A stretch of DNA of 48,105 nt from a virus. The translations under genes and the position numbers were made by a program. This document shows positions 712-35,320 of this stretch, in pieces. Position 1 is the stretch's first letter. Each line of letters opens with the position of its first letter. Below the pieces are notes generated by a model. The model saw nothing but the letters and a program-made list of their open reading frames with translations. It ran no database searches and was not told where the DNA came from. The stretch is taken from positions 1 through 48,105 of IMG/VR virus record IMGVR_UViG_3300031576_000077. One strand, 5' to 3'.

Positions 712-718
712 GGACGAC

Positions 719-1810
719 ATGAAGGCTCCTCCGTCCGGACAGATGGCCGACAGCACGAACCTCGTGATCGAGCAGAAGTCGCGCATGGAGCAGGTGTCCG
801 GGCTCCTGCGCCAGCTCCCGGGCGGCGATGTGTCGGCGACGTATACGCTCGACGCGGCCGACACGATCAAGCCCATCGTCTCGATGTTCGCAGTCGATTC
901 TCTCGGCGGAGCTGCGGCCGACACGCTCGCGCGCATTCAGGGAGAGGACATCGAGACGACGCCGGGCCTGCCGGACGGCTCGATCGTGATCCTCCGCGCG
1001 GCCAGCAACTCGCGCGTCATCACGGTGCAGCACTTGGCTGGCGGGAGCGGTGAAATCTCGCTGACGAATGCGTCGGCCTTCGTGCTCAACTCGACGAAAA
1101 AGCGGCTCGTGCTCGAACGCCGCGCAGCGCAGTGGATCGAGATTGACCGGAGCTACGGCGGCGACGCTGCGGCGGAGCGCGCGTTTCTCGGACTCACGCT
1201 GGCGGCGACGGTTCCGAATCCTGCGAACCCCGGAGACGACGGGAAAGCCATCCTCGCCTCGGGCGGGGCGCTTGCGCTCGGCACGCCAGTGAGCAGCGGA
1301 GGCCCGCTGCATCGCCTGCTCGTTTCGCGCACCTCCGACTACACACTCGGCCTCGCCGACGGGAACTCGTACTCTCACGCGCAGTTCAACGCGATCACCA
1401 CCGAGTCGAGCCCTGGCGCACTGTGGGATGCCGTCAGCTTCGAGGTCAAGATTCCGGTAGGCGTCTCGTTCGTGCGCGTCAAAGCAAATCTCGAGCTTGG
1501 CTTTACCTCGGCCCCGGTCGGCGTCTGGTGGGCCGAAGCGTTCTCGTTCTACCGGGTGAGCGGCGGCGGCTACCCGGGCAACCCGGACGGACACAGCAAG
1601 GTGGGGCTCCTCGCCACGAGCTTCCAGGGCAACTCGGCCGCGACCGTCACCTGCGCGCTCAACGGCGCATCGGGCGAAATCGCTGTGAGCAGCGGCGACC
1701 GATTGAAGCTCATGGTGCGCGGCTACGGCTCGGGCGGCGGGAACCAGATCAAGATTCGCGGAGCCGCGCTCCCGGCCTACTGCTGGCTATCGGTCGAGTT
1801 CTTCGCGTGA
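719..1810 (+). CDS. Distal phage structural (tail fiber/appendage-like) protein
   Basis: 363 residues, ATG start 7 bases after the previous stop with a GAGG element upstream. It has no signal peptide and no cysteine-rich region. The first ~115 residues (not visible in the truncated paralogue) contain a Ser/Ala-rich stretch ending in a KKRLVLERR segment typical of proteins that attach to a structure through their N-terminus. Residues ~135-170 share the repeat motif with the upstream gene, and the C-terminal ~200 residues are beta-rich (Gly/Ser/Thr/Val). No enzyme motif is seen. I infer a virion appendage; a head fiber or another distal virion part is equally possible. Confidence 0.6.
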   Translation: MKAPPSGQMADSTNLVIEQKSRMEQVSGLLRQLPGGDVSATYTLDAADTIKPIVSMFAVDSLGGAAADTLARIQGEDIETTPGLPDGSIVILRAASNSRVITVQHLAGGSGEISLTNASAFVLNSTKKRLVLERRAAQWIEIDRSYGGDAAAERAFLGLTLAATVPNPANPGDDGKAILASGGALALGTPVSSGGPLHRLLVSRTSDYTLGLADGNSYSHAQFNAITTESSPGALWDAVSFEVKIPVGVSFVRVKANLELGFTSAPVGVWWAEAFSFYRVSGGGYPGNPDGHSKVGLLATSFQGNSAATVTCALNGASGEIAVSSGDRLKLMVRGYGSGGGNQIKIRGAALPAYCWLSVEFFA

Positions 1811-1820
1811 GGTGTAACTC

Positions 1821-2159
1821 GTGGCGCAGCTGAACGTTCTCGCCGAGTCGGCATCGCTCTCGGACAGCGACTTCAAGTCGGCTGCGAGCGGAGGCGACAC
1901 GTTCGAGAACAACGGCCGAACGGTGCTCTGGATCAAGAACGAGAGCGGAGCGCAGCGCGTGGTGACGGTGGCCGCATCGGGCCAGTGCAGTCATGGATTC
2001 CTCCACAATCAGGTGCTCACGATCAGCGCCACGACCACGCTCTACAAGACGCGTGCGTTTCCTCCCGCGCGCTTCGGCGGGCGCCCGACGATCACCTACA
2101 GCACGCCCTCCGGGATCCTGCTCGTCGGCGTGAGTCAACAGGAGTACCACGGCACATGA
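1821..2159 (+). CDS. Small phage structural protein, unknown
   Basis: 112 residues with a GTG start; its TGA overlaps the ATG of the next gene (ATGA). The protein is beta-rich and soluble, with no signal peptide. The internal pattern of alternating Val/Thr and short turns (WIKNESGAQRVVTVAASG) resembles small beta-sandwich proteins found in phage late operons, such as decoration or fiber-associated proteins. I do not recognise a named family. Translational coupling to the secreted beta-helix gene suggests co-expression. Confidence 0.5.
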   Translation: MAQLNVLAESASLSDSDFKSAASGGDTFENNGRTVLWIKNESGAQRVVTVAASGQCSHGFLHNQVLTISATTTLYKTRAFPPARFGGRPTITYSTPSGILLVGVSQQEYHGT

Positions 2160-4690
2160 TCGCTCGACTGCTACTCGCGCTCGCGTTCTGCGCTGCCGTC
2201 CCTGCGTTCGCCGACGTTACAATCTCTGGCGGTGCGGCCGGTGGCGCCCTCCCGCAGGTGACGGTCGCAGGGCTCCCGACGTGCGACGCCACGACGCAGG
2301 GCTCGAGCCGTGTCGTGACGGATGCTCTTAACGAGACGAGCTGCACCGTCGGCGGCGGCACCGCTGACAACACATGCGACTGCATCGACGGCGTGTGGAC
2401 GCTCCGCGGAACGACGTCCACCGTCGCCGACGGCGACAAGGGTGACGTCAACATCACGGGTGGATCCTGGGAGATCGACGCCGGAGTGGTCGCGGCACCC
2501 GAGATCGCAACGGACGGCGTTGCGGCGGCAGAGGTTGCTGCCGATGCCGTAGGAACGTCGGAAATCGCAACCGATGGCGTCTCGGCGGCCGAGCTGAACG
2601 CTACCGGCGTCGAGGCCGAGCTCGAGGCTGCGCTCGACCTACAGGACATCGCCGGCGCGGTAACGGACGCCCAGGTCCCGAACACGGTCACGATCGACAA
2701 CGCTGCGGGACTCGACGCTGCTGGGGCGCGCCTGATCTACAAGGCGGCCGGTGGCGGCACCGCGTTCGAGGGAGACTGCTTCGTCGAGGACGTGAACGAC
2801 AACGGGACAGCGGACAACGGCGAGCAGTGCGTTACGAGCGGCGATCACATCGCAAACGGTGCCGGCGGCCAACCTCAGAACGGCGCCGTTGCCTACTACG
2901 CACGCGACTTCGATACGGCGGCGAGCCTCACCGATGGACTACAGGAGGCCGTTAACCATTGCATCGCGACCGTCGATCAGCGTGGCTGCATCATCCTTCT
3001 GGGACGAGGCACCTACGATCTCCAGGCGCAGCTTTCGTTCGTTGCCACGGAGCCTGCGACGACTCCGACCAGCATCACGATTCGAGGCGCGGGGATCGGT
3101 CGGTCAGGTGGTAGCGGCACGCGAGTCTGGGTCAATGCTGCGCTGACGACCGCGAACAGCAACTGCAGCGGCGAAGAGGGCGGCACCTTCACGGACGCGA
3201 CCATCCCGGTCTGCGCCGGCATTCTCGTAGTGGGCTGGAATCATCGGTTCCAAGACCTCGAAATCCTCACAGCCGCTGCCGCTAACGCGGATGTATTGAT
3301 GGAGCTTGCGTCGCGCTCAACAGCGGGGCCTAGCTCTCCTGCCAACATGGACACCCCGGCTGTGTACTCGACGAGCCACACGATCCTCGACAACGTGCGG
3401 TTTACGGATGGCGACTTGGCGCAGGTGTACTGGAACAATCGCGACAACCAGGCGGCCAGCCAGAGCGACGCGAACGACTGGCGCCACGTGAGCTTCGGCG
3501 CCCCCAACTTCGTACCGCGCTACTCCGTGTTCATCGACAACCAGAACACGAGCGTCAACAAGTGCGATCACTGCCACTTCCGCGACGTGTCTGTTGCGAA
3601 CATAAACGTCAGGCAAGGCGAAGGGCTCGAGCTGGACTGGGGCTTCTCCGAGTCAGCCGGCATCGCCGACGCGGCCAAGTACATGTACCGCTACTGCTCG
3701 GACAAGATCACGGATACGGACTCATCGCTCCCCGGTGCGGTGGCGTGCGGTGACTTGAGCGGAGCCAACTGGAAGCGCGGCGGCGTCTCGCACTGGCACC
3801 ACGAGACGACGTCCGGTCACGGTGGCTTCTTCTTCCACGACGGGTCTTCTACGACCCCGGGACTCGCTCTCGAGTTCTACATCCGCGACTCGAGCATCCA
3901 GCAGTCGGACACAGCGACCAAGATGCTGGACTGGGACGGAGTCGGCGCGCTCGATCTCACCGGGAACAGCTTCATCAACAACACCGCTGGATTGACGGTC
4001 ATCGACATCGATTGCGACGGGTGCTCCGGCGCGAACAACCGCAACCAGCTCCAGCTTACTTGGATCGGGAACACGCCAGAGCCGACGGACATCGACGTGC
4101 AGATCGACGTCGCGGACGCGATCGTGATCGAGGGCATGATGCCGCGATACGCGGTGAACGGGCTGGCGTGGAGCGACACGAACGGAAACGGAACGCGAGA
4201 TGTCAGCGAGGGTCCACTCGAGACCTTCATGCTCCACTACTGGGTGGAGGACGCTGCCTTCGGTGATTTCCTCACGTCACGCTGTCTACAGTACGCGGAA
4301 GGCAACAACAACAACGTGCAGATCGCGCTGCCGCTCGCGTGCACGTCTACGTCGAACGCCTCCTCGACGATGGCAACCTTCCCGCTCAACCGGACTCCCG
4401 TTGTCACCGGCTTCTCGTGCCTCGGGGTCGGGGGCGGCGTTACCGACGATCTCACGATGGAGATCGCGTGGCGCAAAGGCGACGCGATCGGAACGCAGAC
4501 CGAGGCCGGTAGCCTACTGATGACAGCTTCTGACTGGGGCTCGACGATCAAGAGCACGGCTCTCGCGACGCCCTCCGTGTGTCCGTACGCGGCGAACGGC
4601 TGCGGTCTCGGTGTCAAGGTGGACGCAACCACGTTGTCGGCTGGCACGCTCATGGATCTCAATTGTGACGTGCAGGTTCAGCTTCACTAA
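2156..4690 (+). CDS. Secreted beta-helix (pectate-lyase-fold) protein, tailspike-like
   Basis: 844 residues. The ATG overlaps the preceding stop and immediately encodes a clear Sec signal peptide (MIARLLLALAFCAAVPAFA, cleavage expected after AFA at ~19). Residues ~110-150 hold short degenerate repeats of the type EIATDGVAAAEVA, as in the shafts of phage tail fibers. From ~residue 260 the sequence is a right-handed beta-helix of the pectate-lyase fold (YYARDF, DGLQEAVNHC, a GAGIGRSGG turn, many Asn/Asp ladders and paired Cys). A segment SGHGGFFF near residue ~565 recurs in the secreted protein at 11409. The family suggests a polysaccharide-binding or -cleaving tailspike. The signal peptide is odd for a virion protein, so an exported enzyme or envelope-acting factor is the alternative. 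Confidence 0.65.
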   Translation: MIARLLLALAFCAAVPAFADVTISGGAAGGALPQVTVAGLPTCDATTQGSSRVVTDALNETSCTVGGGTADNTCDCIDGVWTLRGTTSTVADGDKGDVNITGGSWEIDAGVVAAPEIATDGVAAAEVAADAVGTSEIATDGVSAAELNATGVEAELEAALDLQDIAGAVTDAQVPNTVTIDNAAGLDAAGARLIYKAAGGGTAFEGDCFVEDVNDNGTADNGEQCVTSGDHIANGAGGQPQNGAVAYYARDFDTAASLTDGLQEAVNHCIATVDQRGCIILLGRGTYDLQAQLSFVATEPATTPTSITIRGAGIGRSGGSGTRVWVNAALTTANSNCSGEEGGTFTDATIPVCAGILVVGWNHRFQDLEILTAAAANADVLMELASRSTAGPSSPANMDTPAVYSTSHTILDNVRFTDGDLAQVYWNNRDNQAASQSDANDWRHVSFGAPNFVPRYSVFIDNQNTSVNKCDHCHFRDVSVANINVRQGEGLELDWGFSESAGIADAAKYMYRYCSDKITDTDSSLPGAVACGDLSGANWKRGGVSHWHHETTSGHGGFFFHDGSSTTPGLALEFYIRDSSIQQSDTATKMLDWDGVGALDLTGNSFINNTAGLTVIDIDCDGCSGANNRNQLQLTWIGNTPEPTDIDVQIDVADAIVIEGMMPRYAVNGLAWSDTNGNGTRDVSEGPLETFMLHYWVEDAAFGDFLTSRCLQYAEGNNNNVQIALPLACTSTSNASSTMATFPLNRTPVVTGFSCLGVGGGVTDDLTMEIAWRKGDAIGTQTEAGSLLMTASDWGSTIKSTALATPSVCPYAANGCGLGVKVDATTLSAGTLMDLNCDVQVQLH

Positions 4691-4749
4691 CTGACGACCC
4701 TGTAGAGCTCCGCGCTCGCTCACCACCTGCTCGAAAAGGAGAACTCACC

Positions 4750-5205
4750 ATGCGCTATCGACGATGGCTGCTTCTGGCCTTGTTTCTGCTGGCGTCTCCG
4801 GCATTCGCAGCGGACTTCCGCAGCGGGACCGAAGCGACGAACAGCGTGGTCACCGGCCTCCAGCGCGGAGCGACAGGCTATGCCTCCTTCACGGCGAGCG
4901 GGTCGGCCTTCGTCGGCGTCGCTCAGTGCGCGCGGGCGACGGGCTCCGTGGTCTGCAATCTCGCGGCCAGTACCGATCACGACTGCGCAGTCGTGTTCTG
5001 GCGTTGCCCTGCCGGCGTCAGCACAGCGGACCCCCTCGTCTGCCGCGTTGATACCTACCAGGACGGCAGCGGCACGTGGCAGAGCGAAGTCACCGGAGAC
5101 GTGTCTCGGGTGCGCGATCTCAACGAGATCGACCCGACGCCGAACCTTGTCGCCGTGGTGACGACCGTCGCCCAGACGACCCGCGTGCAGGTGGACTGCC
5201 GATGA
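4750..5205 (+). CDS. Small secreted protein, unknown
   Basis: 151 residues. A strong ribosome-binding site (AAAAGGAG) precedes the ATG, and the N-terminus is a textbook Sec signal peptide (MRYRRWLLLALFLLASPAFA, cleavage after ~20). The mature part is ~130 residues, Thr/Val/Ala-rich, with about six cysteines, so a disulfide-stabilised beta-sandwich is likely. Its stop overlaps the start of the next secreted protein (ATGA), which implies the two are made in coupled amounts. I do not recognise a family. A subunit or chaperone partner of the large downstream beta-helix protein is one inference. Confidence 0.55.
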   Translation: MRYRRWLLLALFLLASPAFAADFRSGTEATNSVVTGLQRGATGYASFTASGSAFVGVAQCARATGSVVCNLAASTDHDCAVVFWRCPAGVSTADPLVCRVDTYQDGSGTWQSEVTGDVSRVRDLNEIDPTPNLVAVVTTVAQTTRVQVDCR

Positions 5206-7829
5206 CACGGATACTGCTTGCACTCGTGTTGCTCGCTGCTCTCGCTGTGCCGCTGTCTGCCTACGCCGAGAGCTGTACGAGCTCGGGCTCGGGCCGCTGG
5301 ACGGCGGTCGCAACCGGCCCGTGGACGGGCTGCACGCCGGACGGCACTGACACCTTCTCGGTGGCCTCCGGGCACATCGTCTACGTCGATGGGACGATCG
5401 TCGTCACCACCGGGAGCGTGACGGTCGCGTCCGGCGGGAAGCTCGTGGTGCTACCCGGCTCGATCCTCCAGCCCGGCGCGTTCGTCGCGACGAGCGCCGG
5501 CGGATCGCTCGAAGTCCGCGGCGAACGGCTGGCGACGTGCCGGATCCGGTCCGAGGTGGACTGGACCGCCGTCGATCCGGTGGCGACGCTCGACTGCCCG
5601 GCCGCGACGATCGCGACGACGTCCGACTACCTGGTCTTCGGCGAGGAGGATCCGGCGGCCGGCGACTTCACGCGGAAGGCGGTTGTCGTCGGCCCCGGCG
5701 GGCCGGTGCCCGGTGCTTACAAGCCGTCGCTCAATCGATACGCCTGGTACGACATCACGGCGCTCTCGGGCAACGCGGTCACCTACGACCTCGACGCCGG
5801 CACCTACGTGGCTTCACCCGATGCGCCCTACGCCGGGACGCGCGGGAACAACACGACCACGGCGATCTCGAGCGCGCAGCTCTCCTACACCGTGCAGCCC
5901 GGGCGGCGTGCGACGCTCGTGACCGTGGCGCTGGCCTACGGCTCCGTGGTCGCGCTCCACGCGGACCGCGGCTCGGGCTACCTCTACTTCGTCGAGAGCG
6001 CGGCGAACGCTGCCGACCCGACCTACTGCTCGGGGCGCGCGGCGAAGATCCTGCACACGGAGAACGGCGGCGCGGGGGACGATCTCCTCTACGTCGCCGG
6101 TGACGTCTCGGGCTGCACCAACGCGAGCGCGCGGATCATTCCGGGGGCCAGGCGCGGCGATCTCGTCTACCTAGTGCGGCCGGCGACGGTCGATGGAATC
6201 GTCACCGCGACCCACACGGGGAGCGTGCGCATCGAGAGCGGGGCAGCGCTCAACGTCAAGTTGGCGCGTTTCACGCGGCTCGGAGTCACTGCTGCCGCAG
6301 CGATCTCGCCGAGCTTGACGCGCAACTGCAACATCTGCCTCTACCAATCGGCCGGCTCTCCGGCGGCGACGATCACCGGGCGCTTCGAGGACGTCGATAT
6401 CTCGTTCCCGGAGGCGGAGACGACGGACACGGGCGTCTTCGAGGTGTCGAGCCTCGCGACCCTCACCGACTACCGCTACCCCAACAGCGGGCTCCTCGAC
6501 CTCTCCGGCCTCTCGATCAAGCGCCTCCACATCCACGACGGGCGCGACGAGGGCACGGCGTCGGGCACCCATGGCATCTATCTCGACGGCCCGAAGAACG
6601 TCGTGATCGACGGCGCGAGGCTCGAGCGGCTGTCGGACGATCTCTTCGGGGCGGCTATCGCTGGCAACTCGACCGGCTCGGCGAGCGACGCGAACAGCAT
6701 GAGCGTTCGGCGCATCCTCGCCTACGAGGGGCTCGCGGAGGACAACAACAGCCAGCAGGGGATCGAGCCGAGCGTGATCGACGACGCGACGCCGCTCGGC
6801 CACAACTACGTGCGGCAGCTCAGCGCGATCACGGTGCGCGACTCAATCGCAGTCGGCACCTACTTCGAGGCGCTCTCGACGAACGGACACGCGGGCACGG
6901 TGCTCGACGGCGTGGTGAGCGGGGGCACGTTCGACGCGAACGCGAACCGGCCCGGGTTCAACATCCAGACCACGACCGGGACGGGCGTCGCGGTCTCGCT
7001 GAGCAACGCGGCGCGGGTGAAGAACTCGCTGCTCACCACCTACGCCGAGGACGGGACGAGCGCGGTTCAGGACGTGCTCGTGACCGCAAGCCTCGAGGAC
7101 TCGGTCGTGTGGGGCGACGAGCAGAGCGCGGACCCCGGGCACAGACACAACAACCTCCAGGGCTGCTACCGCAGCCTGATTCATCACGCCGGATCCACCA
7201 ACTTCGTTCTCGAGGGCAGCTCCGGCAGCGACGTGTCCTTCAACCCGCTCCGCGAGTTCGTAGACTGCGCCTACGTCAACTCGGCGACGGCGACTCGGCT
7301 CGCGCAGAACTACAACACTGGCTCGACCGCGTACACGCTCAACTTCGCGCGCTTCCTCTACCTGCAAACCGCCGGCTGGGACGCGACGAACGGGGCGCTC
7401 GGTGCGGTGACGTTCGCGTCTGGCGCAACGGTCAACGTGAACGGAGCCGTGCTCTCGACGGGGACGCCGGGGACCAAGAACTTCGACGCGAACGCGGGCG
7501 GGTCGGTCTCAGACGTCTGCTACGAGAGCAACAACACGGCGGCAACGGACTTCCAGTCCTACGCTTCTGCGACGACGCTCTCGGTCCCCGACATCTATCC
7601 GGACGCCGCCTCCGCTCCGGCGCTCGGGAGTCTGGTCGGCGACCCGAACAGCATCGACGTGTGCGAGCGCGCGCAACCGAGTGAGCTCGGGCTGTCGCGA
7701 GTCGGTGCGGCGCACGTCCTACTCGGAGACTTCGCGGTCGAGCAGATGTATCCGGTCTACACGAGTCGGAAGGATCTGCTGCAAGTCGCGCCTCCGTTCG
7801 CGCACCCGCGCGGCCATCGGGACTTCTGA
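5202..7829 (+). CDS. Large secreted beta-helix protein with G8-like N-terminal region
   Basis: 875 residues. The coupled ATG gives a signal peptide (MTRILLALVLLAALAVPLSAYA, cleavage after ~22). The mature N-terminus (W-ATGPWTGCTPDGTDTFSVASGHIVYVDG then GSVTVASGGKLVVLPGS) has the Gly spacing of a G8-like beta domain. The rest is a long series of beta-helix coils (IDGARLERL, NNSQQGIEP and similar ladders). No catalytic signature can be assigned by eye. The gene lies in the late strand between structural and lysis genes. Carbohydrate binding or depolymerisation is inferred from the fold class only. Like its neighbour at 2156, the signal peptide argues for export rather than cytoplasmic tail assembly. 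Confidence 0.6.
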   Translation: MTRILLALVLLAALAVPLSAYAESCTSSGSGRWTAVATGPWTGCTPDGTDTFSVASGHIVYVDGTIVVTTGSVTVASGGKLVVLPGSILQPGAFVATSAGGSLEVRGERLATCRIRSEVDWTAVDPVATLDCPAATIATTSDYLVFGEEDPAAGDFTRKAVVVGPGGPVPGAYKPSLNRYAWYDITALSGNAVTYDLDAGTYVASPDAPYAGTRGNNTTTAISSAQLSYTVQPGRRATLVTVALAYGSVVALHADRGSGYLYFVESAANAADPTYCSGRAAKILHTENGGAGDDLLYVAGDVSGCTNASARIIPGARRGDLVYLVRPATVDGIVTATHTGSVRIESGAALNVKLARFTRLGVTAAAAISPSLTRNCNICLYQSAGSPAATITGRFEDVDISFPEAETTDTGVFEVSSLATLTDYRYPNSGLLDLSGLSIKRLHIHDGRDEGTASGTHGIYLDGPKNVVIDGARLERLSDDLFGAAIAGNSTGSASDANSMSVRRILAYEGLAEDNNSQQGIEPSVIDDATPLGHNYVRQLSAITVRDSIAVGTYFEALSTNGHAGTVLDGVVSGGTFDANANRPGFNIQTTTGTGVAVSLSNAARVKNSLLTTYAEDGTSAVQDVLVTASLEDSVVWGDEQSADPGHRHNNLQGCYRSLIHHAGSTNFVLEGSSGSDVSFNPLREFVDCAYVNSATATRLAQNYNTGSTAYTLNFARFLYLQTAGWDATNGALGAVTFASGATVNVNGAVLSTGTPGTKNFDANAGGSVSDVCYESNNTAATDFQSYASATTLSVPDIYPDAASAPALGSLVGDPNSIDVCERAQPSELGLSRVGAAHVLLGDFAVEQMYPVYTSRKDLLQVAPPFAHPRGHRDF

Positions 7830-8497
7830 TGCCGGCCGACTCCGGATCCCACGTCTTCCTAGGCCGAGTCGGCCCCGAGCCGCGCGAGCTTTCGGACTCA
7901 GCGCTCTCGGGAGCGCGCGCCTGGTATCACGTCCACTGCCTGATGGACGGCCCGCAGGCTCCCGTCGCGGTTGCGCTCACCCGGGCTGGCGTCGTCGCTG
8001 GCGACCGCGTGAACCCGGGCGCGACGCTCGATATCCAGGGCACGTCGATCTGGCTCGTCGGGCCGAAGGACGGGCAATCGGCGCTTGTCTCGGTCGAGCG
8101 CCGCTTCGCTCCGACCCACCGCTCGGACACGCTGCTCGGCGAGCTCGTGACGCTCACCTCGTGGAAGTCGAGCGGCATGGGCCTCGAGATCACGCCCGGC
8201 AAGTGGCACAACCCGTGGACGAACATCCTCGGCATGGGACTCGGGCTCCTGAAGGCAACGGGAGGCCGTGTCTGGTTCGGGACGCACGTCGATACCTCGC
8301 TCCCTCCTCCGCCGACTGCCGAGGCCCTGGCCCGCTCGGCCGGGCTCTTTCCGCTAGATCCGAGTGACGGCCCGCTGCTGCTGCCGGGCAACCCAGCGCT
8401 CTACTGCTGCGCCTTTGAGCCGAGGGTGTTTCTCTACCTCGCGAAGCTCGCGGGTGGCAGGCAGTTCGGGCCGGGCGGTGAGCCGTGGCAGTCCTGA
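7829..8497 (+). CDS. Phage protein of unknown function
   Basis: 222 residues, start overlapping the previous stop (TGATG) and stop overlapping the next start. There is no signal peptide or membrane span. The centre has a SLVSVERRF region and a Gly-rich GMGLGLLKATGG patch; the C-terminus is Pro/Gly-rich with adjacent cysteines (YCCAFEP). I do not recognise the family. The position directly before the lysis genes could fit a late accessory or virion-associated protein, but nothing in the sequence proves that. Confidence 0.5.
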   Translation: MPADSGSHVFLGRVGPEPRELSDSALSGARAWYHVHCLMDGPQAPVAVALTRAGVVAGDRVNPGATLDIQGTSIWLVGPKDGQSALVSVERRFAPTHRSDTLLGELVTLTSWKSSGMGLEITPGKWHNPWTNILGMGLGLLKATGGRVWFGTHVDTSLPPPPTAEALARSAGLFPLDPSDGPLLLPGNPALYCCAFEPRVFLYLAKLAGGRQFGPGGEPWQS

Positions 8498-8808
8498 GCG
8501 ACCTCGGGATTTCGGAGCTGACGGCGCCGCTGCTCGGCATCGCGGTGATCGTGGTGGGGCAGGCGCTCGTGATCTGGCGCGCGAATGCCATCGCGACCCG
8601 GCGCTTCGAGTACATCGACGCTCGGCTCAAGCATCAAGACGAGTGCATCGACGAGCTAAGACAGAGCATCGCCGCAGGGGATCGCCGCATCTGGGAGTCG
8701 ATCGATCAGACAGCGCGTCAGCTCGCGAACATCACGGGGCAGTGGAGTGGTGTCTTGCTCGAGCGCGAGGCGCAGGATCGGCGCCGGGCCATGGAGGGCA
8801 AGGAGTGA
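8485..8808 (+). CDS. One-TM coiled-coil protein of the lysis cassette (spanin- or XhlA-like)
   Basis: 107 residues, GTG start. Residues ~13-31 form one hydrophobic segment (TAPLLGIAVIVVGQALVIW), followed by a ~70-residue charged, coiled-coil-like helix. This topology (N-terminal membrane anchor, long helix) is that of inner-membrane spanin subunits and of small XhlA-like lysis proteins. The gene sits immediately upstream of the lysozyme and holin-like genes. No outer-membrane spanin lipoprotein was found beside it, so the assignment rests on topology and position. Confidence 0.5.
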   Translation: MAVLSDLGISELTAPLLGIAVIVVGQALVIWRANAIATRRFEYIDARLKHQDECIDELRQSIAAGDRRIWESIDQTARQLANITGQWSGVLLEREAQDRRRAMEGKE

Positions 8809-8816
8809 AGGGAGGG

Positions 8817-8861
8817 ATGGAGTTCGAGATGGCGAAGCGCGCACTGAGCTGGCTTCCGTGA
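8817..8861 (+). CDS. 14-residue leader ORF coupled to the endolysin
   Basis: The ATG follows a strong GGAGTGAAGGGAGG element, whereas the lysozyme start has none. The ORF encodes MEFEMAKRALSWLP and its TGA overlaps the lysozyme GTG (GTGA). I infer that ribosomes loading here reinitiate at the endolysin gene, so the leader sets endolysin dosage. The peptide itself shows no recognisable function. Confidence 0.4.
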   Translation: MEFEMAKRALSWLP

Positions 8862-9322
8862 AGGCGAGCGCCAAGCTGCGCATGTGGCTCCGCAGCAAGG
8901 AGATGCTGCGGCCTGACGTCTACGACGACGGCGGCGGAGTGCCGACGCAGGGCTACGGGCACACGGGCCCAGACGTCCGCTTCGGCGGGCCACCGATCGA
9001 CCAGGCGCAGGCCGAGCTGTGGTTCCATGCCGACGTCTCCGTGCACGAGCGTGAGGTGGAGCGCCTCGTCACGGTGCAGCTCACGCAGGGCATGTTCGAC
9101 TGCCTCGTGAGCTTCGACTTCAACTCCGGCGGGCTCGAGTTCGTGGTGAACGGTAAGGTGCGACAGTCGCGCGTGCTCGTCGCCGTGAACGAGCGCCGCT
9201 GGAACGACGCCGTCGAGGAGCTGGTGACGTGGAACCAGGACGGCGGCAAGGACCGGCGCGGGCTGCTCACGCGCCGGCTCGAAGAGGGTCTGTTCTTCAC
9301 GTCTGAGAGGTATCCCGCATGA
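8858..9322 (+). CDS. Endolysin, T4/P22-type lysozyme (GH24 muramidase)
   Basis: 154 residues from the coupled GTG. The GH24 catalytic triad is visible with T4 spacing: E15 (SKE), D24 (YDDGGG) and T30 in PTQGYGHTG; T4 has E11, D20, T26. The enzyme cleaves the beta-1,4 bond between N-acetylmuramic acid and N-acetylglucosamine in peptidoglycan. No signal-arrest-release N-terminus is present, so a holin is needed for access. Its stop overlaps the start of the holin-like gene (ATGA). An upstream in-frame ATG at 8747 would overlap the preceding gene by 62 bases and adds non-conserved sequence, so I prefer 8858; ATG 8882 is another alternative. Confidence 0.85.
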   Translation: MKASAKLRMWLRSKEMLRPDVYDDGGGVPTQGYGHTGPDVRFGGPPIDQAQAELWFHADVSVHEREVERLVTVQLTQGMFDCLVSFDFNSGGLEFVVNGKVRQSRVLVAVNERRWNDAVEELVTWNQDGGKDRRGLLTRRLEEGLFFTSERYPA

Positions 9323-9609
9323 TGATCCCCGGCCCGGTGCTCGAAGCGCTCAAGTCCCTCAAGTCTCCGCTCTGGCCGATCCTCGTCGGCCTCGTGCTGC
9401 TCGCCAAGCGCGCGCCGACGCAGATGCACTCGGTGATCGACTACCTCGCGAGCGTCGGCGAGTTCCTGTGGAACCCCGAGAACGCGGCGTCGATCGCGAT
9501 GATCGGCGCCGGGCTCGCGTGGTGGGCCAAGCGCAATGGGAACCAGGGCGATCGATTCGAGGCGGCGGTGCAGGAGGCGATCGCGAAGCAGACACCGCCC
9601 GCTGGATGA
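9319..9609 (+). CDS. Holin-like small membrane protein
   Basis: 96 residues, start overlapping the lysozyme stop. Two hydrophobic segments are seen (~17-30, SPLWPILVGLVLLAK; ~56-70, AASIAMIGAGLAWW), separated by a loop with charged ends, and the tail is hydrophilic. Size, two-span topology and position next to the endolysin fit a class II holin that forms the membrane lesion. The order endolysin then holin is reversed from lambda, and the sequence alone does not identify a family. Confidence 0.55.
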   Translation: MMIPGPVLEALKSLKSPLWPILVGLVLLAKRAPTQMHSVIDYLASVGEFLWNPENAASIAMIGAGLAWWAKRNGNQGDRFEAAVQEAIAKQTPPAG

Positions 9610-9665
9610 CGGCCGCCACGCTGCTCGGGCTGCCGCAGCCGCCCCCGAAGGTTCCGGGGCCGTAG
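9606..9665 (+). CDS. 19-residue proline-rich ORF after the holin
   Basis: A complete ORF (MTAATLLGLPQPPPKVPGP) starts on an ATGA overlap with the holin-like gene and stops one base before the next GTG. It fills exactly the gap between two genes. It may serve only to keep ribosomes on the message; a functional peptide cannot be shown. Confidence 0.25.
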   Translation: MTAATLLGLPQPPPKVPGP

Positions 9666-9666
9666 C

Positions 9667-9954
9667 GTGCCTCCGCTGGTCCGGCTCCGTGAGGATCTCG
9701 GCGTGCGGCACGTCGGGTGGTGGTGCCCTGCCTGCGCACGACCGCACGAGGTCCCGCTCCACGCGACGGATGGCTGGATCTTCGACGGCTCGCCCGAGGC
9801 GCCGACGCTCCATCCCACCGTGATCGCGACGAGCTCGCGCCGCGGCGTGGTCGAGGTGACCTGCCACTCCCGGATCCGGGCCGGGCAGATCGAGTACCTG
9901 CCGACGTCGAGCCACGCGCTTGCGGGACAGACCGTGGCGATGGAGCCGGCGTGA
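9667..9954 (+). CDS. Small CxxC protein, DUF6527-like
   Basis: 95 residues, GTG start. The order of motifs is WWCPAC-RPHEVPL, GWIFDGSPEAPTLHPT, then a VTCHSRIRAGQIEYL strand and a terminal SHALAGQTV. From memory this matches a small phage/prophage family (DUF6527 type) with conserved G-W-x-(F/W)-(D/N)-G, PT-x-x-PS/T and HALAGQTV motifs; biochemical function in phages is not established. The next gene shares the same core, so the two are a paralogous pair. Its stop overlaps that gene (GTGA). Confidence 0.6.
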   Translation: MPPLVRLREDLGVRHVGWWCPACARPHEVPLHATDGWIFDGSPEAPTLHPTVIATSSRRGVVEVTCHSRIRAGQIEYLPTSSHALAGQTVAMEPA

Positions 9955-10265
9955 GTGAGTCGCGTCTCTCCGTGGACGGATTCGCGGTGGCCGGAGAGCA
10001 CGAGTTCTTCGCCGCCGACCACGCGAAGCGCCCTGGCGCGTTCTACTTCGTGCGCGACGTCGAGGCTGGGAAGCCTGACCGTCTCGGGATCTGGGTGCTC
10101 GTGCCGAGCGAGGCGTGGGGGGTCTGCGCCGGCCGGCTGCCGCTCAACTGCCCGGACGGCTGGACCTGGGACGGCAACCAGGAGCGCCCGACGCTCTCGC
10201 CGTCGATCCACTGCGTCGACCACTGGCACGGCTACCTGCGCGCCGGCCGCTTCGAGAGCTGCTGA
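9951..10265 (+). CDS. Second small DUF6527-like protein
   Basis: 104 residues, GTG start coupled to the preceding gene. It repeats the core motif (GWTWDGNQERPTLSPSI, then HGYLRAGRFESC), preceded by a longer N-terminal domain with FYFVRDVEAGKPDRLGIWVLVP. It lacks the CPAC pair and the C-terminal HALAGQTV box of its neighbour. The 3' end converges with the minus-strand zinc-ribbon reading frame. Function unknown; the paired arrangement suggests a duplicated and diverged accessory module. Confidence 0.55.
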   Translation: MSESRLSVDGFAVAGEHEFFAADHAKRPGAFYFVRDVEAGKPDRLGIWVLVPSEAWGVCAGRLPLNCPDGWTWDGNQERPTLSPSIHCVDHWHGYLRAGRFESC

Positions 10266-10421
10266 CGCCCGCGCCCTCCGCCATCCCGCCTTCCGGCAGC
10301 CTGCCCGCTCGCAGTAGCGGGCATCGACGCGGCGCGCCGGGAACCATCGCCGGCACTCCTCACAGCGACGGGACGGGAGCCGAGGTGCACCACAGGTCGG
10401 GCAGCGAGAGGAGCGCGCCAT
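10266..10421 (-). CDS. Zinc-ribbon protein, N-terminal coding segment (3' end unclear)
   Basis: An ATG at 10421 overlaps the stop of the upstream minus-strand gene (TGATG). The first ~52 residues are a convincing treble-clef/zinc ribbon: RCPTCGAPRLPSRRCEECRRW, then DARYCERAGC-K-GWRRAR, with three Cys pairs. From about 10265 the same frame stays open to 9441 but runs antisense to two plus-strand genes and looks like shadow sequence. A one-base shift would bring in a TAG at 10232-10234. Either the gene is truncated or frameshifted at its 3' end, or the two strands really overlap. Confidence 0.4.
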
Positions 10422-10909
10422 CAGTGCTCCGTGCGCGCGATCCACGCCCATGCGAGCACGCGCTCGAGGTCAGCGATCGCCATCATCAGCTGTGGGACCT
10501 GAGCCGCTCGCACTGTACCGATTCCGGGCTCGAGGCGTGCTGCGCACCATGGCTCGGGCGGGCAGCGCTCGGCGTCGGTCTTGACCGGCTGCGTCTCCGT
10601 TACCCGGTGCTCGTGCAGCCAGCGCCAGTGCGATGCGCCCGCCGTCGAGCGACTCGCGACGCCCACCGTCACCAGCCGCTCGTCGGTGGCGTCGAGCGAG
10701 ACATAGGCCACGAGCGACGTGCCGCCGCGCGTGTCGGCAGTCAGGTGGCACGGCGGGTCGAGCACCGGCAGCACGACCCTCTCTCCCGCGAGCGCCCGCG
10801 CGAGGAGGTCCGAGACGACGGCGAGCGCCTCCTCGGTCACCTCCTCGCGGTAGCTCCGGCGGGTGTGCCCCGTTGAGAGCGTGACGTGGTGCAGGTAGCG
10901 GTCGGTCAC
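10421..10909 (-). CDS. Conserved phage-type hypothetical protein
   Basis: 162 residues, second gene of a minus-strand operon; start and stop both overlap neighbours. The N-terminus (MTDRYLHHVTLSTGHTRRS-REEV) resembles, from memory, a family of unnamed phage proteins that begin with a similar RYLHHVTLxTGH motif. The middle is Ala/Leu/Val-rich with a DPPCHLTADTRGGTSLVAYVSL beta region. No catalytic motif or membrane span. Role unknown; expression from its own strong promoter in a late-strand region suggests a prophage-expressed or separately timed function. Confidence 0.55.
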   Translation of the reverse strand: MTDRYLHHVTLSTGHTRRSYREEVTEEALAVVSDLLARALAGERVVLPVLDPPCHLTADTRGGTSLVAYVSLDATDERLVTVGVASRSTAGASHWRWLHEHRVTETQPVKTDAERCPPEPWCAARLEPGIGTVRAAQVPQLMMAIADLERVLAWAWIARTEH

Positions 10910-11238
10910 GCCTGCACGTCGTATTCAGCACGCCCACGTGCCGCCGCGGCGCCGGAATAAGGATCGATGTAGATGCGGGCCACTGCCGCGCCCTCACGGT
11001 CGGCCTCACGACGCCGGCAATAGATCAGCGTGTCGTGGCCCTGGGCGGTCTCCCCGGTCCACTCGGCGGCGCTACGTAGGTGTCGATAGCCGAGGGCGTC
11101 TGCGCAGGAGCGGCGAGCCGCCGCCAGGCTAGGCCCGCGGTACAGCTCGCGTTGTCGGCCGCGGAGCCACTGATCGGCGTCGGCGTAGACGTACTCGGCC
11201 ACGTAGGTCGTGTCGGTGCGCTGCTCGATCTTGGCCAT
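10906..11238 (-). CDS. Hypothetical protein, first gene of inverted operon
   Basis: 110 residues with a GGGGAGAG ribosome-binding site about 7 bases before the ATG. The sequence is charged and soluble (Arg, Asp, Tyr rich), with alternating beta/alpha character and no cysteine motif except YCRRREADRE. I do not recognise it. It is the promoter-proximal gene of the three-gene minus operon and directly follows the palindrome-controlled promoter, so an autoregulator or a toxin/antitoxin-like role is conceivable but unsupported by motifs. Confidence 0.5.
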   Translation of the reverse strand: MAKIEQRTDTTYVAEYVYADADQWLRGRQRELYRGPSLAAARRSCADALGYRHLRSAAEWTGETAQGHDTLIYCRRREADREGAAVARIYIDPYSGAAAARGRAEYDVQA

Positions 11239-11281
11239 CTGTCTCTCCCCTGCCTCTGGTGTCGCCCGAGGCGCGGCGTGT

Positions 11282-11300
11282 GTCCCCGATTATCGGGGAC
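11282..11300. promoter_or_regulatory. 19-bp perfect palindrome, candidate operator
   Basis: GTCCCCGAT-T-ATCGGGGAC has 9-bp arms around one base, the geometry of an operator for a dimeric HTH repressor. It overlaps the -10 of the minus-strand promoter in the 170-base divergent gap 11239-11408. Its sequence differs from the immunity-region operators, so another regulator (host or phage) probably binds it. No second copy was noticed in the window. Confidence 0.6.
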
Positions 11301-11317
11301 GCGGCGGGCGGTGTCAA
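11289..11317 (-). promoter_or_regulatory. Near-consensus promoter of the inverted operon
   Basis: On the minus strand TTGACA (11317-11312) is followed after exactly 17 bases by GATAAT (11294-11289). The predicted start near 11282 leaves a ~44-base leader before the gene starting at 11238. The -10 lies inside the 19-bp palindrome, so a bound dimer would block it. Confidence 0.7.
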
Positions 11318-11408
11318 GCCATTCGTAAGCGCCTGATTTCGTGAGCCTTTTCGCGCGCCTCGGACGGGGCCGCGGCCCACTGGCGCCCGTGCGCCCGGAG
11401 GACGGCCC

Positions 11409-12479
11409 ATGCGTCTTCGCCCGCCCTGGCTGCTCCTGCTGCTGCTCGTCCCATGGCTCGCGCTCGGGGCGTCCAATCCGTGGGCCTGCGGTCAGCCTCC
11501 GTCGCCTCCGTCCTGCCTCGACTCCGCGACCTCGGTCCAGGTCGTCGCGGGCGGAACGCGCAGCGTCTCGTTCGGCGTCGCCGGCCGCGCCGCCGACGGG
11601 ACGGGAGGCACCTGGTCGGGCCTCCTCTCCGACGCGCTCACGCTGACCGGCCCAGAGCACGCCTGCTGGGTCGGCGGCACGATCGACGGTCCGGCCGTCC
11701 CGGACTCCGAGATCTACTACGAGTGCAGCTCGACGCACGGCTACACCGGCGGCCCGTGCTTCGCGTACCACACGACGGCCGGGATCGCGCCCGACGATCC
11801 GGCAGGGCACGTGATCGAGGACGTGGCGGTCGGCGGCTACGGCGACGGGCTCTCGATCCCGCCGAGCGGCGATGCCGGCGACGTACTCGGGCGCAGGCTC
11901 TACCTCCACGACCTCCACGACGACGCGCTCGAGTCCGACTGGGCGCAGCAGAGCCTCGGGTGCGAGGACTGCCTGTTCGAGCGCGTGTTCATGGGGCTCG
12001 CCTACAACAGGCGGAGCAGCGCGAGCGGCAACACGCCGCGGCCGGGCGTCACGATGACGCTGCGCGACTCGCTCGTTCAGCTCCACCGCTTCGTCCACTC
12101 CTACAAGGAGAAGTCTGGGCATGGGGGAATTTTCAAAGATGACGATGGCTTCGCTCCGGATTTCATCGTCACGCGCAACACGTTCCTGATGGGCCCGGTC
12201 GCTGGCAGCGGCCAGGTGCAGTTCCCGATGCTCGGCCACGTCCGCGAGTGCGAGGGGAACGTCCTGCTCTGGCAGGGCACCGAGAGCGCGTTCGACTCCA
12301 TGCTCGCGACGGGCAGCGCCTTCGACGGCGCGACGAACGGCGAGCGCCTGGCCGCGCTCGCGCACTGCTACGAGGTCCGGGTCAAGCCTGCTGGTCAGAG
12401 CGCCGCGGACTTCCGCGCCGAGCACTGGGACCCGCTCGTCTCGGCGTGGAAGGCTGCGCACGCGGCGGGTGGTTCGTGA
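11409..12479 (+). CDS. Secreted beta-helix protein
   Basis: 356 residues with a signal peptide (MRLRPPWLLLLLLVPWLALG, cleavage near 20). The mature protein starts with a Cys-rich segment (NPWACGQPPSPPSC), followed by right-handed beta-helix coils: YLHDLHDDALESD, CLFERVFMGLAYN, TLRDSLVQLHRF. The motif SGHGGIFKDDDG corresponds to SGHGGFFF in the protein at 2156, suggesting that the two share a module. The stop overlaps the start of the secreted phosphoesterase gene. Carbohydrate binding or processing outside the cytoplasm is a fold-level inference. Confidence 0.6.
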   Translation: MRLRPPWLLLLLLVPWLALGASNPWACGQPPSPPSCLDSATSVQVVAGGTRSVSFGVAGRAADGTGGTWSGLLSDALTLTGPEHACWVGGTIDGPAVPDSEIYYECSSTHGYTGGPCFAYHTTAGIAPDDPAGHVIEDVAVGGYGDGLSIPPSGDAGDVLGRRLYLHDLHDDALESDWAQQSLGCEDCLFERVFMGLAYNRRSSASGNTPRPGVTMTLRDSLVQLHRFVHSYKEKSGHGGIFKDDDGFAPDFIVTRNTFLMGPVAGSGQVQFPMLGHVRECEGNVLLWQGTESAFDSMLATGSAFDGATNGERLAALAHCYEVRVKPAGQSAADFRAEHWDPLVSAWKAAHAAGGS

Positions 12480-13456
12480 TGCGCTGGCTCGCTGTGCTCC
12501 TGCTCGCCTCCGCTCCGGCCCACGCCGACGGGCTCCTCTACGCCGCTGGCGACATCGCGAGCAGCGGGAGCGGCAAGGAGCTGACCGCGCAGATCCTCGA
12601 CGCGCACCCGGCCGGCATCGTGCTCACGCTCGGCGACAACGCCTACAGCGACGGCACGGCGGCCGAGTTCGCGGCGCGCTACGAGCCGACGTGGGGTAGG
12701 CACAAGGCCAGGACGTACCCGTCGCCCGGGAACCACGATTGGCGCACGGCGTGCGCGAGCGCCTACCGCGACTACTTCGCCGCGGCCGGCCGGCCGACGG
12801 GAGCGCCCTGCGACCTCTGGTACAGCTACGACTTCGACGGCTGGCACTTCGTCGCGCTCAATAGCAACGTGGACACCGACTACGGGAGCGCGCAAGCGGC
12901 GTGGCTCGAAGCGGACCTGTCGGCCTCGGACGCCGACTGCACGCTCGCCTACTGGCACCACCCGCGCTTCAGCTCCGGCGACAGCCACGGCAGCAGCACG
13001 GCGACGCAGGACGTGTGGAAGATCCTGCACAGCCACGGCGCGGACCTGGTACTCGCGGGGCACGACCACAACTACGAGCGGTTCGCGCCGCTCGACGCCT
13101 TCGGCAACGCCGACGCGACGGCGCCGCGCTCGTTCGTGGTCGGGACGGGCGGTAGCAGCCTCCGGCCGATGGGCGTGATCGAGCCCGGCAGCGAGGCCAG
13201 CGCGGGCAACCTCTACGGCGTGCTCGAGCTGACGCTGCGCGCGACTGGCTACGACTGGCGATTCCTCCCGGCCGCAGGCTACGCCTACGCGGACGCCGGC
13301 TCGGCCTCGTGCGTCGGCCTCCACGCGCCGCCGTGGATGGGCGATGCGGGGTGCGGGATCGGACCCGAGCTTGCGCTCCTGCTTCCGCTGCTCTACTCAA
13401 TCCGAGTTCGCCGACACCCTCGAAGCGTGAAGCCAGATGCTCGACCGAGGGCGTGA
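12479..13456 (+). CDS. Secreted metallophosphoesterase with C-terminal anchor-like tail
   Basis: 325 residues. Signal peptide of ~16 (MRWLAVLLLASAPAHA). All blocks of the calcineurin-like metallophosphoesterase fold are visible: GD-A (24-27), LGDNAYSDGT (51-60), GNHDW (84-88), WHHPRF (159-164) and GHDHNYERF (194-202), close to the purple-acid-phosphatase group. These residues bind a dinuclear metal centre and hydrolyse phosphate esters. The C-terminus has a Cys, a hydrophobic run (GPELALLLPLLYSIRV) and then RRHPR, which resembles PEP-CTERM/MYXO-CTERM sorting tails. I infer an enzyme exported to the periplasm or cell surface. It is an unusual phage cargo gene; lysogenic conversion or phosphate scavenging are possible roles. 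Confidence 0.8.
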   Translation: MRWLAVLLLASAPAHADGLLYAAGDIASSGSGKELTAQILDAHPAGIVLTLGDNAYSDGTAAEFAARYEPTWGRHKARTYPSPGNHDWRTACASAYRDYFAAAGRPTGAPCDLWYSYDFDGWHFVALNSNVDTDYGSAQAAWLEADLSASDADCTLAYWHHPRFSSGDSHGSSTATQDVWKILHSHGADLVLAGHDHNYERFAPLDAFGNADATAPRSFVVGTGGSSLRPMGVIEPGSEASAGNLYGVLELTLRATGYDWRFLPAAGYAYADAGSASCVGLHAPPWMGDAGCGIGPELALLLPLLYSIRVRRHPRSVKPDARPRA

Positions 13457-13533
13457 AGTGTCGCGGGGCATGGGCGGATTGCGGGTGCGTGAGGGCTCGG
13501 AACAGCTACCGAGCACGAGCGTGACTCCGCATA

Positions 13534-13575
13534 GCGGGCGGTGGCGGACCGGCATCTGGACTCCGCCCCGCCCGC
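13534..13575 (+). repeat. GC-rich hairpin between cargo genes
   Basis: GCGGGCGGTGGCGG pairs with CCGCCCCGCCCGC around a 15-base loop, with one bulged base. It lies in the 135-base gap 13457-13591, which otherwise holds nothing recognisable. No T-run follows, so it may be an RNA-stability or attenuation element rather than a classical terminator. Confidence 0.45.
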
Positions 13576-13591
13576 AACTCGTCATGCCGCT

Positions 13592-13771
13592 ATGAGACGC
13601 CGGCAGCCGTTCTCGGCCAGGAAGCCTCGCGGCATCTTCCAGTCCGCGCCCGACGGCTGGGAGCATCGCCTCAGGGTCGCGCTCCGGCTCGGCAACGGTG
13701 CGGTCCTCACGGCCCGCCAGTGCCACGACCTGGCCGTGGCGCTCGGGTGGACCACCGGGGAGCGGCCGTGA
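13592..13771 (+). CDS. Small basic protein, unknown
   Basis: 59 residues from the ATG at 13592 (MRRRQPFSARKPRGIFQSAP...); a GTG at 13541 would add 17 residues but lies within the hairpin. The protein is basic at the N-terminus, with a predicted helical C-terminal half (LTARQCHDLAVALGW) like a small DNA-binding domain. No family recognised. Its stop overlaps the GTG of the next gene (GTGA), which supports its reality. Confidence 0.4.
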   Translation: MRRRQPFSARKPRGIFQSAPDGWEHRLRVALRLGNGAVLTARQCHDLAVALGWTTGERP

Positions 13772-14334
13772 TCGTGCTCGACGTCGAGCGCCGCCGCCGC
13801 CTGCTCGCGGCTCTCGTGCTCTGCCGGACCTGCGGCGTGCGCGTGGTGCGCCCCACGAGCACCGGGCAGTGCTTCTGGTGCTGGGCGCGGCGCGGCGCGC
13901 TCGCCCTCGCGCTGCTCTCGGTCTTTCTGGCCCAGCCAGCTCGCGCACACGAGCCGGCCATCGTGCTCCGGATCGTCGATTGCGACACCATGGCCGTCGC
14001 CTTCGAGCGCCTGCCCGACGAGCGTCGCGAGATCGTCGTGCGGGTGCGCGGGATCAGTGCCCCGGAGAGCCGCGGGCCGGAGCGCCCGCTCGGGCGCGCG
14101 TGCACGGCGCACCTGCGCGACCTCCTGCCGCTCGGCACTCGGGTCTGGCTCCTGCCGCCCTTCGAGCCGTCGGTCGGCTGGCGGTGGGGAGCCGGCGTCT
14201 TGCTCTCGCCGGCCGGTGTGCATGATCTCGGCGAGGAGCTGGTGCGCGAGGGGTGGGCGCTCCGCTGGACGGACTGGAAGCGGGACCCGCGGCCGAGCTT
14301 CGATCCGGCGGCGCCGTACCCGCTCGATCCATGA
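13768..14334 (+). CDS. Membrane-anchored/exported SNase-like nuclease
   Basis: 188 residues from the coupled GTG. The N-terminus has two Cys pairs (CRTC 19-22, CFWC 35-38), then a hydrophobic segment with a signal-peptide-like end (ALALALLSVFLAQPARA, ~44-60), then a staphylococcal-nuclease OB-fold: IVDCDT (69-74), VRVRGISAPES (91-101), AHLRDLLPLGTRVWLL, and LVREGWALRW. The Asp/Thr, Arg94 and Glu100 of the SNase active site are present, but the later catalytic Arg region reads GWRWGAG and is uncertain. SNases are Ca-dependent DNA/RNA endonucleases. The topology places the nuclease outside the inner membrane, perhaps to degrade competing DNA. Confidence 0.65.
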   Translation: MIVLDVERRRRLLAALVLCRTCGVRVVRPTSTGQCFWCWARRGALALALLSVFLAQPARAHEPAIVLRIVDCDTMAVAFERLPDERREIVVRVRGISAPESRGPERPLGRACTAHLRDLLPLGTRVWLLPPFEPSVGWRWGAGVLLSPAGVHDLGEELVREGWALRWTDWKRDPRPSFDPAAPYPLDP

Positions 14335-14642: not shown

Positions 14643-14687
14643 ATGTGCCTGCGGCCGTACGGCCAACTGGATCGCGGAGGGCGGCCA

Positions 14688-15593: not shown

Positions 15594-15597
15594 CCTC

Positions 15598-17382: not shown

Positions 17383-17467
17383 GGTTGCCCCCCGGTTGCC
17401 ATCGTGCGGTCTCGAGCGCGTCGGCGCGGCCACCGCGCGAACTCCCCGAGTGAAATCGCGGCCCGTC

Positions 17468-33888: not shown

Positions 33889-34099
33889 GCACCGACTGTG
33901 CAGCGACTGAGCACGAGGCGCGCGGCGTGCACAAGAGTGCACAAAAATCTGCGTCGAGCGCGTGCGAAAAGGCTCGACTTCCCTCCGGGAACAGGGCATC
34001 AATCATCTATGATCGCGCGGGCTGCACTCATTCGCCTGGAATCGTCGGGGGGCGTGCACAGCCGGGAGAGTGCAGGCCGCGGACTTCGCGCGAGCTGCT

Positions 34100-34134: not shown

Positions 34135-34148
34135 ACCCAGGGTGCGTG

Positions 34149-34805: not shown

Positions 34806-34814
34806 GGAGAATCC

Positions 34815-35318: not shown

Positions 35319-35320
35319 AC

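What the first reader, a model, noticed from the sequence alone, without database searches (positions are those of the whole stretch)
2156..13456. A block of Sec-exported proteins in the late region of a phage
Five genes (2156, 4750, 5202, 11409, 12479) have clear signal peptides, three of them large beta-helix proteins. Virion proteins are normally assembled in the cytoplasm and lack signal peptides. This looks like a secreted module, for example capsule depolymerases, surface modifiers or lysogenic conversion factors, embedded between structural and lysis genes.
Basis: partly seen in the sequence, partly recalled or inferred. Interest (0 to 1): 0.75.

Follow-up and report, generated by a model that had tools for sequence, protein, structure and literature searches.

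The report
Phage-encoded exported fibre-like proteins and hydrolases
Beside its tail and lysis genes this temperate phage carries five genes whose proteins should be sent out of the bacterial cytoplasm by the host's own export machinery, and at least seven other phages or prophages, mostly unrelated, carry a similar block in a similar place, which suggests that many phages make a set of outside-the-cell tools as well as their virus particles.

Summary
The five signal peptides are real as far as sequence can show. All five have a positive n-region, a hydrophobic core and a signal-peptidase site. Three of the genes overlap the gene upstream (ATGA or TGATG). The mature proteins carry 2.2% Cys against 0.40% in the phage's virion proteins (p = 2e-10). 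In comparable viral loci only 2 of 411 proteins of at least 300 aa have such a leader, against 4 of 16 here (p = 2e-5). The beta-helix claim is not confirmed.

The gene at 12479 is a purple-acid-phosphatase-type enzyme with an added C-terminal tail. The N-terminal domain of 2156 (C-x2-GGG-x5-C-x-C) recurs in five other phage contigs, always in a protein with a signal peptide. The closest relative found is a prophage (capsid protein 63% identical) with the same plan: tail | exported fibre-like protein and exported sulfatase | lysis | two exported proteins. An independent locus (L123) joins a signal peptide to a genuine Pfam tail-fibre C-terminal domain.

Best reading: a recurrent, late-expressed Sec-exported module of fibre-like proteins plus hydrolases acting outside the cytoplasm, additional to ordinary non-exported tail proteins. 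Its exact role (glycan or receptor handling at exit, superinfection exclusion, lysogenic conversion) is inferred, not shown.

The parts
1..2159 (+). Three conventional tail/fibre genes without signal peptide (1-711, 719-1810, 1821-2159); the first two are paralogues
   Evidence: 1821-2159 matches phrog_16194 tail protein, E 3.6e-7; 1-711 against 719-1810 31% identity, E 1e-22; no SP
2156..4690 (+). SP1: exported fibre-like protein, 844 aa: signal peptide + Cys domain (C-x2-GGG-x5-C-x-C) + tail-fibre-type spacer (DAVGTSEI) + long C-terminal region of unknown fold; 22 Cys in the mature form
   Evidence: SP; ATGA overlap with tail gene 1821-2159 and start context; homology of the Cys domain to five other phage proteins; 45% identity over the first 78 aa with the 2009-aa protein of G020
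4750..5205 (+). SP2: small exported protein, 151 aa, 6 Cys, no family
   Evidence: SP; no Pfam above cut-off
5202..7829 (+). SP3: exported protein, 875 aa, 12 Cys in the mature form; proposed beta-helix not confirmed
   Evidence: SP; ATGA overlap with SP2; no family; AlphaFold pLDDT 31
7829..8497 (+). Unknown 222-aa protein without signal peptide
8485..9609 (+). Lysis cassette: TM protein 8485-8808, phage lysozyme to 9322, TM protein 9319-9609
   Evidence: PF00959 E 1.9e-28, phrog_7 endolysin; hydrophobic segments
10421..11238 (-). Two minus-strand genes with a near-consensus promoter-like site at 11317-11289: moron-like insertion between the lysis cassette and the second exported pair
   Evidence: (TTGACA-17-GATAAT, 11 of 12; 0.8 such sites expected in the region)
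11409..12479 (+). SP4: exported protein, 356 aa, 9 Cys, no family
   Evidence: SP; no match
12479..13456 (+). SP5: exported purple-acid-phosphatase-type metallophosphoesterase with an extra ~46-aa C-terminal tail (hydrophobic stretch + Arg cluster)
   Evidence: PF00149 E 9.4e-12; PDB purple acid phosphatases to 8e-12; 73 bacterial homologues, most close ones ending before the tail; TGATG overlap with SP4
13768..14334 (+). Possible sixth exported protein: SNase-like, internal GALALALLSVFLAQPARA|HEP
   Evidence: phrog_452 E 5.6e-4; start codon and topology uncertain

Best explanation
A temperate siphovirus carries a Sec-exported gene set beside its tail and lysis genes. Host Sec and signal peptidase I move SP1-SP5 out of the cytoplasm, where disulphides can form. 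SP1 is a fibre-like protein: signal peptide, a small Cys domain, a tail-fibre-type spacer and a long C-terminal region. SP5 is a purple-acid-phosphatase-type hydrolase with a hydrophobic/Arg tail. SP1-SP3 are made with the late genes and are additional to the phage's ordinary, non-exported tail proteins. Most likely the set acts on the outside of the producing cell or in the lysate: fibre-like proteins bind surface glycans or receptors and the enzymes trim them, so that progeny leave cleanly and are not re-adsorbed, or so that a lysogen's surface is changed. Shown from sequence: leaders, Cys enrichment, position, recurrence, phosphatase motifs. Inferred: export itself, timing, and the glycan/receptor role. 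The confidence is for an exported module distinct from the virion; for the glycan/receptor role alone I would say about 0.4.
For: Signal peptides and calibration. Cys 2.2% in mature exported proteins against 0.40% in 12 virion proteins. Recurrence: the Cys domain of SP1 was found by pattern in G020 (Mu-like myophage, 2009-aa protein after the tail fibre), G021 (between tail and holin-like genes), L140 (inside head-tail genes), L222 and L239; with the window this is six of six with an SP. L123: two SP proteins (1716 and 473 aa) directly before the lysis genes, and the 473-aa one passes the Pfam cut-off for a tail-fibre C-terminal domain (PF21882, 34.5 bits against 24.9). L140 protein: sub-threshold collagen match and tail-fibre PHROG matches. 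Relative prophage G539 (capsid 63%, portal 49%, TerL 41% identical): tail fibre, SP 474 aa, sulfatase with leader (PF00884, 65.8 bits), TM protein and peptidase, then SP 486 aa and SP 132 aa. Phosphatase. In several of these phages a conventional non-SP tail protein lies just upstream.
Against: No export, localisation or activity data. SignalP was not available. Fold of SP1-SP4 unknown, so 'fibre-like' for the window's own SP1 rests on a short shared domain, a spacer motif and its homologue in G020. Nine capsid-sharing alphaproteobacterial prophages and one from an Acidobacteriota genome show no large SP proteins in the fetched tail-side DNA, so the module is not a fixed part of this phage lineage. 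How the proteins would cross the outer membrane before lysis is unknown.
Confidence: 0.6

Rival explanations
1. Lysogenic conversion: the genes are morons that change the surface or nutrition of the lysogen (for example phosphate scavenging by the phosphatase) and have no role in the lytic cycle.
For: SP4-SP5 lie behind a minus-strand pair with its own promoter-like site; the phosphatase is a widespread cellular enzyme acquired by the phage; another viral contig has an exported homologue among replication genes; lambda lom and bor are expressed in lysogens (PMC7067206).
Against: SP1 starts inside the stop of a tail gene and SP3 inside the stop of SP2, so SP1-SP3 look like members of the late operon; no plus-strand promoter-like site was found in 1-16000 (sigma-70 pattern only).
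Confidence: 0.3
2. Superinfection exclusion or progeny protection: exported fibre-like proteins occupy or mask the phage's own receptor.
For: Fibre-like modules with a leader beside the virion fibre genes; late position suits protection of progeny from debris.
Against: No sequence similarity was found between the exported proteins and the phage's own tail proteins 1-2159; no binding data.
Confidence: 0.2
3. They are virion appendages after all: either the leader is not used, or the fibres mature outside the cytoplasm and dock on virions after lysis.
For: Position among structural genes in several phages (L140, L239, G020), fibre-type domains.
Against: Canonical cleavage sites, high Cys content, separate non-SP tail proteins upstream, and exported enzymes in the same block.
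Confidence: 0.12
4. Artefact: host DNA or misassembly in a viral contig.
For: Exported proteins are normal for bacteria (10% of genes by the same predictor).
Against: ATGA overlap with a phage tail gene; lysis genes on the other side; same plan in an integrated prophage and in unrelated phages.
Confidence: 0.03

Closest known systems
Lambda-type morons lom and bor (exported proteins of a temperate phage)
   Same: Phage-encoded exported proteins beside tail and lysis genes (lambda gene positions from my own knowledge; lysogen expression in PMC7067206)
   Different: Lom/Bor are small outer-membrane proteins with their own expression; here several larger Cys-rich proteins are coupled to tail genes and have fibre-type modules or hydrolase domains
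Bdellovibrio MAT (mosaic adhesive trimer) proteins, PMC10769870
   Same: Phage-fibre-like proteins with a signal peptide followed at once by a conserved beta-rich domain and variable tips
   Different: Encoded by a bacterium for predation; no S74 domain was found in the proteins here, and MAT sequences were not compared directly
WceF of Pantoea (tailspike-like exported glycanase), PMC7949094
   Same: Tailspike fold used by a cell outside its cytoplasm
   Different: Tat leader, chromosomal EPS cluster; the window proteins have no demonstrated tailspike fold
Purple acid phosphatases / PF00149 metallophosphoesterases
   Same: SP5: family match and the full motif set
   Different: Phage-encoded; extra C-terminal hydrophobic/Arg tail not seen in the close bacterial homologues inspected
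Sec-exported endolysins such as Lys44, and SAR endolysins, PMC6116005
   Same: Tailed phages using host Sec for late proteins
   Different: Those are lysis enzymes; none of SP1-SP5 has a recognised cell-wall hydrolase domain

Membership tests
Sec/SPase I exported proteins | n-, h- and c-region with a small-x-small cleavage site | tested here: met
   All five; calibrated; SP4 the weakest
Sec/SPase I exported proteins | Actual export and cleavage | not testable with these tools
   needs a PhoA fusion or N-terminal mass spectrometry
Virion tail fibre / tailspike | Recognised fibre or tailspike domain in the window protein | tested here: not met
   SP1, SP3, SP4: no Pfam, PHROG, NCBIfam or PDB match. 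A domain match exists only in L123 (PF21882) and L140 (fibre PHROGs)
Virion tail fibre / tailspike | Present in the particle | not testable with these tools
   no isolate or proteome
Right-handed beta-helix (pectate-lyase-like) proteins | Fold | tested here: inconclusive
   pLDDT 28.5 and 31.0; only relative L239 has a sub-threshold Beta_helix match (20.7 bits, cut-off 25.9)
Purple acid phosphatase (SP5) | PF00149 domain and relation to solved purple acid phosphatases | tested here: met
Purple acid phosphatase (SP5) | Metal-ligand motif set GD / GDxxY / GNHD / xxxH / GHxH | tested here: met
   read in the sequence: GDIA, GDNAY, GNHDW, YWHH, GHDHNYE
Purple acid phosphatase (SP5) | Phosphatase activity | not testable with these tools
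   enzyme assay needed
Prophage moron / lysogenic conversion factor | Expression from the repressed prophage with own promoter | tested here: inconclusive
   only a minus-strand promoter-like site found at 11317-11289
Bdellovibrio MAT family | Conserved ~130-aa beta-rich domain after the leader; S74 or other trimeric tip | not tested
   MAT sequences not fetched; no S74 match in any exported protein scanned

The most novel reading that the evidence does not exclude
Unrelated tailed phages have repeatedly equipped themselves with a second, Sec-exported set of fibre proteins that fold with disulphides outside the cytoplasm. These work as phage-made surface adhesins, or are taken up by progeny virions only after lysis, alongside exported hydrolases that prepare the cell surface for exit.
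Probability: 0.2. Interest if true: 0.85.

Novelty: new variant of a known kind. Interest (0 to 1): 0.6.

Why it matters
Phage late regions are annotated as if everything there were virion or lysis. If a leader joined to a fibre module is a recurrent design, many 'hypothetical' or 'tail fibre' genes of environmental phages are really secreted proteins. That affects host-range prediction from fibres, the search for depolymerases and surface enzymes, and ideas on where bacterial fibre adhesins such as Bdellovibrio MATs came from. A complete GenBank phage (MW202637.1) already holds such a block, annotated only as hypothetical proteins.

Tried and rejected
Single-protein relative searches for 2156 and 5202 in viral contigs and tblastn of 2156, 5202, L123 and G539 proteins in the phage collection gave nothing; the breakthrough was a DNA pattern for the Cys motif. 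AlphaFold on SP1 (two-sequence alignment) and SP3 gave pLDDT about 30, so no fold search was run. The idea that the C-terminal tail of SP5 (GCGIGPELALLLPLL..RVRR) is a host sorting signal was tested by pattern in 19 genomes and in viral contigs: no match; my hydropathy scan does not call it a TM segment. Profile searches of the Cys domain in 613 genomes of three groups gave only chance matches without the motif, apart from one unrelated CxxGGG..CxC string in L250. Host: the TerL search reached prophages in the phylum of a genome labelled Myxococcota, but the window's own host is not established. Literature searches for exported tail fibres in phages found no report; most subscription journals are not held.
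Full report
Setting. The window is a whole IMG/VR virus record of 48,105 bases. It encodes terminase, portal, head protease, decoration, major head protein, head closure, major tail protein, tail chaperone and tape measure from 36,705 to the end, plus an integrase and ParB-like proteins. It is therefore a temperate tailed phage, siphovirus-like. There are no end repeats, so the join of the two ends (tape measure to tail genes 1-2159) is inferred.

Observation. The five ORFs and their leaders are present at the stated coordinates. The predictor is a rule set of my own: charge of the n-region, a 9-residue hydrophobic core and a small-x-small site. It.3% of bacterial genes, 1.2% of viral genes and 0 of 175 non-gene ORFs in this window. 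Large proteins with a leader are rare in viral loci: 2 of 411, both in one locus (L123) that proved to be another example. Here they are 4 of 16, p = 1.9e-5. The comparison loci came from chance pattern matches and are biased to G+C-rich DNA. Independent support comes from cysteine: 54 in 2,454 mature residues of the five proteins against 14 in 3,463 residues of twelve virion proteins. Three starts overlap the previous gene (2156 and 5202 as ATGA, 12479 as TGATG).

What was not confirmed. No family or PDB match supports a beta-helix in 2156, 5202 or 11409, and the two AlphaFold models are not interpretable.

What the proteins are. SP5 is a metallophosphoesterase of the purple acid phosphatase type with GD, GDxxY, GNHD, HH and GHxH motifs. 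Its best cellular relatives are 54% identical and scattered over many phyla. Most close homologues end at a motif like 'DSGSGxCH', whereas the phage protein continues for about 46 residues with a hydrophobic stretch and an Arg cluster. SP1 begins with a leader, a Cys domain and a spacer of tail-fibre type. SP2-SP4 have no family.

Recurrence of the Cys domain. DNA patterns for C-T-V-GGG...C-x-C and looser forms found five further genuine members in viral contigs: L080/G020, L096/G021, L140, L222 and L239. With the window this is six of six proteins with a leader (in G021 this depends on the upstream start, which my caller chose in L096 but not in L104). BLAST among them is significant down to 6e-13; part of that similarity lies in the leaders themselves. 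Contexts: G020 is a Mu-like myophage in which a small SP protein and the 2009-aa SP protein follow a tail fibre recognised by PHROGs. In G021 two SP genes lie between tail genes and holin-like genes. In L140 two SP genes lie inside the head-to-tail gene run. In L222 the SP gene follows virion genes. In L239 three SP genes lie downstream of the major head protein.

Independent examples without the Cys domain. L123 has adjacent SP proteins of 1716 and 473 aa directly before TM proteins and a PHROG endolysin. The 473-aa protein ends in a tail-fibre C-terminal domain above the Pfam cut-off (PF21882). This is the clearest single case of a leader joined to a fibre module. MW202637.1, a complete GenBank siphovirus from a spring, has a run of SP and lipoprotein-like genes downstream of a large 1089-aa protein, annotated only as hypothetical.

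Closest relative. A prophage in genome G539 (same phylum as a genome labelled Myxococcota) has a capsid protein 63%, portal 49%, protease 46% and TerL 41% identical to the window's, and a HerA-like ATPase 55% identical. Its tail type differs (it looks sheathed), yet the plan is the same. A non-SP tail protein is followed by an SP protein of 474 aa with a fibre-type spacer, then a 603-aa protein with a leader (by eye; my predictor misses it) and a Sulfatase domain (PF00884, 65.8 bits), a TM protein and a peptidase, and two more SP proteins of 486 and 132 aa. Prophages of Alphaproteobacteria (nine) and of an Acidobacteriota genome (one) that share only the capsid family have no SP protein of at least 300 aa in the fetched tail-side DNA. 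The module is therefore gained and lost, not a fixed lineage trait.

Mechanism. Shown from sequence: leaders, disulphide-type composition, coupling to tail genes, position around the lysis genes, recurrence, and hydrolase domains (phosphatase here, sulfatase in the relative). Inferred: late expression, export to the periplasm and release at the latest by lysis, and action on surface glycans or receptors. The presence of separate non-exported tail genes just upstream in several phages argues that the exported proteins are additional to the virion's own fibres. SP4-SP5, behind a minus-strand moron-like pair with a near-consensus promoter, may be a separate unit and could serve lysogenic conversion.

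Comparison with the known. Exported phage accessory proteins are known (lambda lom and bor, PMC7067206; exported endolysins, PMC6116005). Bdellovibrio MAT proteins are fibre-like and have a beta-rich domain right after the leader (PMC10769870), a striking parallel that I did not test by sequence. I found no report of a recurrent Sec-exported fibre module in phages in the open library. I rate it a new variant of a known kind: exported phage accessory proteins, but with fibre-like architecture, several genes, and a recurrent place beside tail and lysis genes.

Noticed in passing
14643-15593 (+): Patatin-like phospholipase (PF01734, 93.6 bits; phrog_25573) without a signal peptide, encoded in the phage after the exported block.
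   Followed up: partly
13768-14334 (+): SNase-like protein (phrog_452) with a CxxC...CxxC stretch before a hydrophobic segment; a leader-bearing SNase-like gene (by eye) also lies in a prophage of G1100 (L287:3592-4065).
   Followed up: partly
11317-11289 (-): Near-consensus sigma-70 promoter (11 of 12, spacing 17) in about 72% G+C DNA, upstream of minus-strand genes 10906-11238 and 10421-10909: candidate moron.
   Followed up: no
15598-17472 (-): HerA/FtsK-like ATPase, 55% identical to one at the edge of the G539 prophage.
   Followed up: no
L002:4848-5678: Another viral contig encodes a leader-bearing metallophosphoesterase (42% identical to SP5) among replication genes.
   Followed up: partly
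27945-28265 (-): Small protein starting MRFALLLPLLLAGCSYQ: lipoprotein-type leader, 106 aa, in the early region.
   Followed up: no
L300 (MW202637.1, record 33159-38823): Complete deposited siphovirus with several SP or lipoprotein-like genes in a row, all annotated hypothetical.
   Followed up: partly
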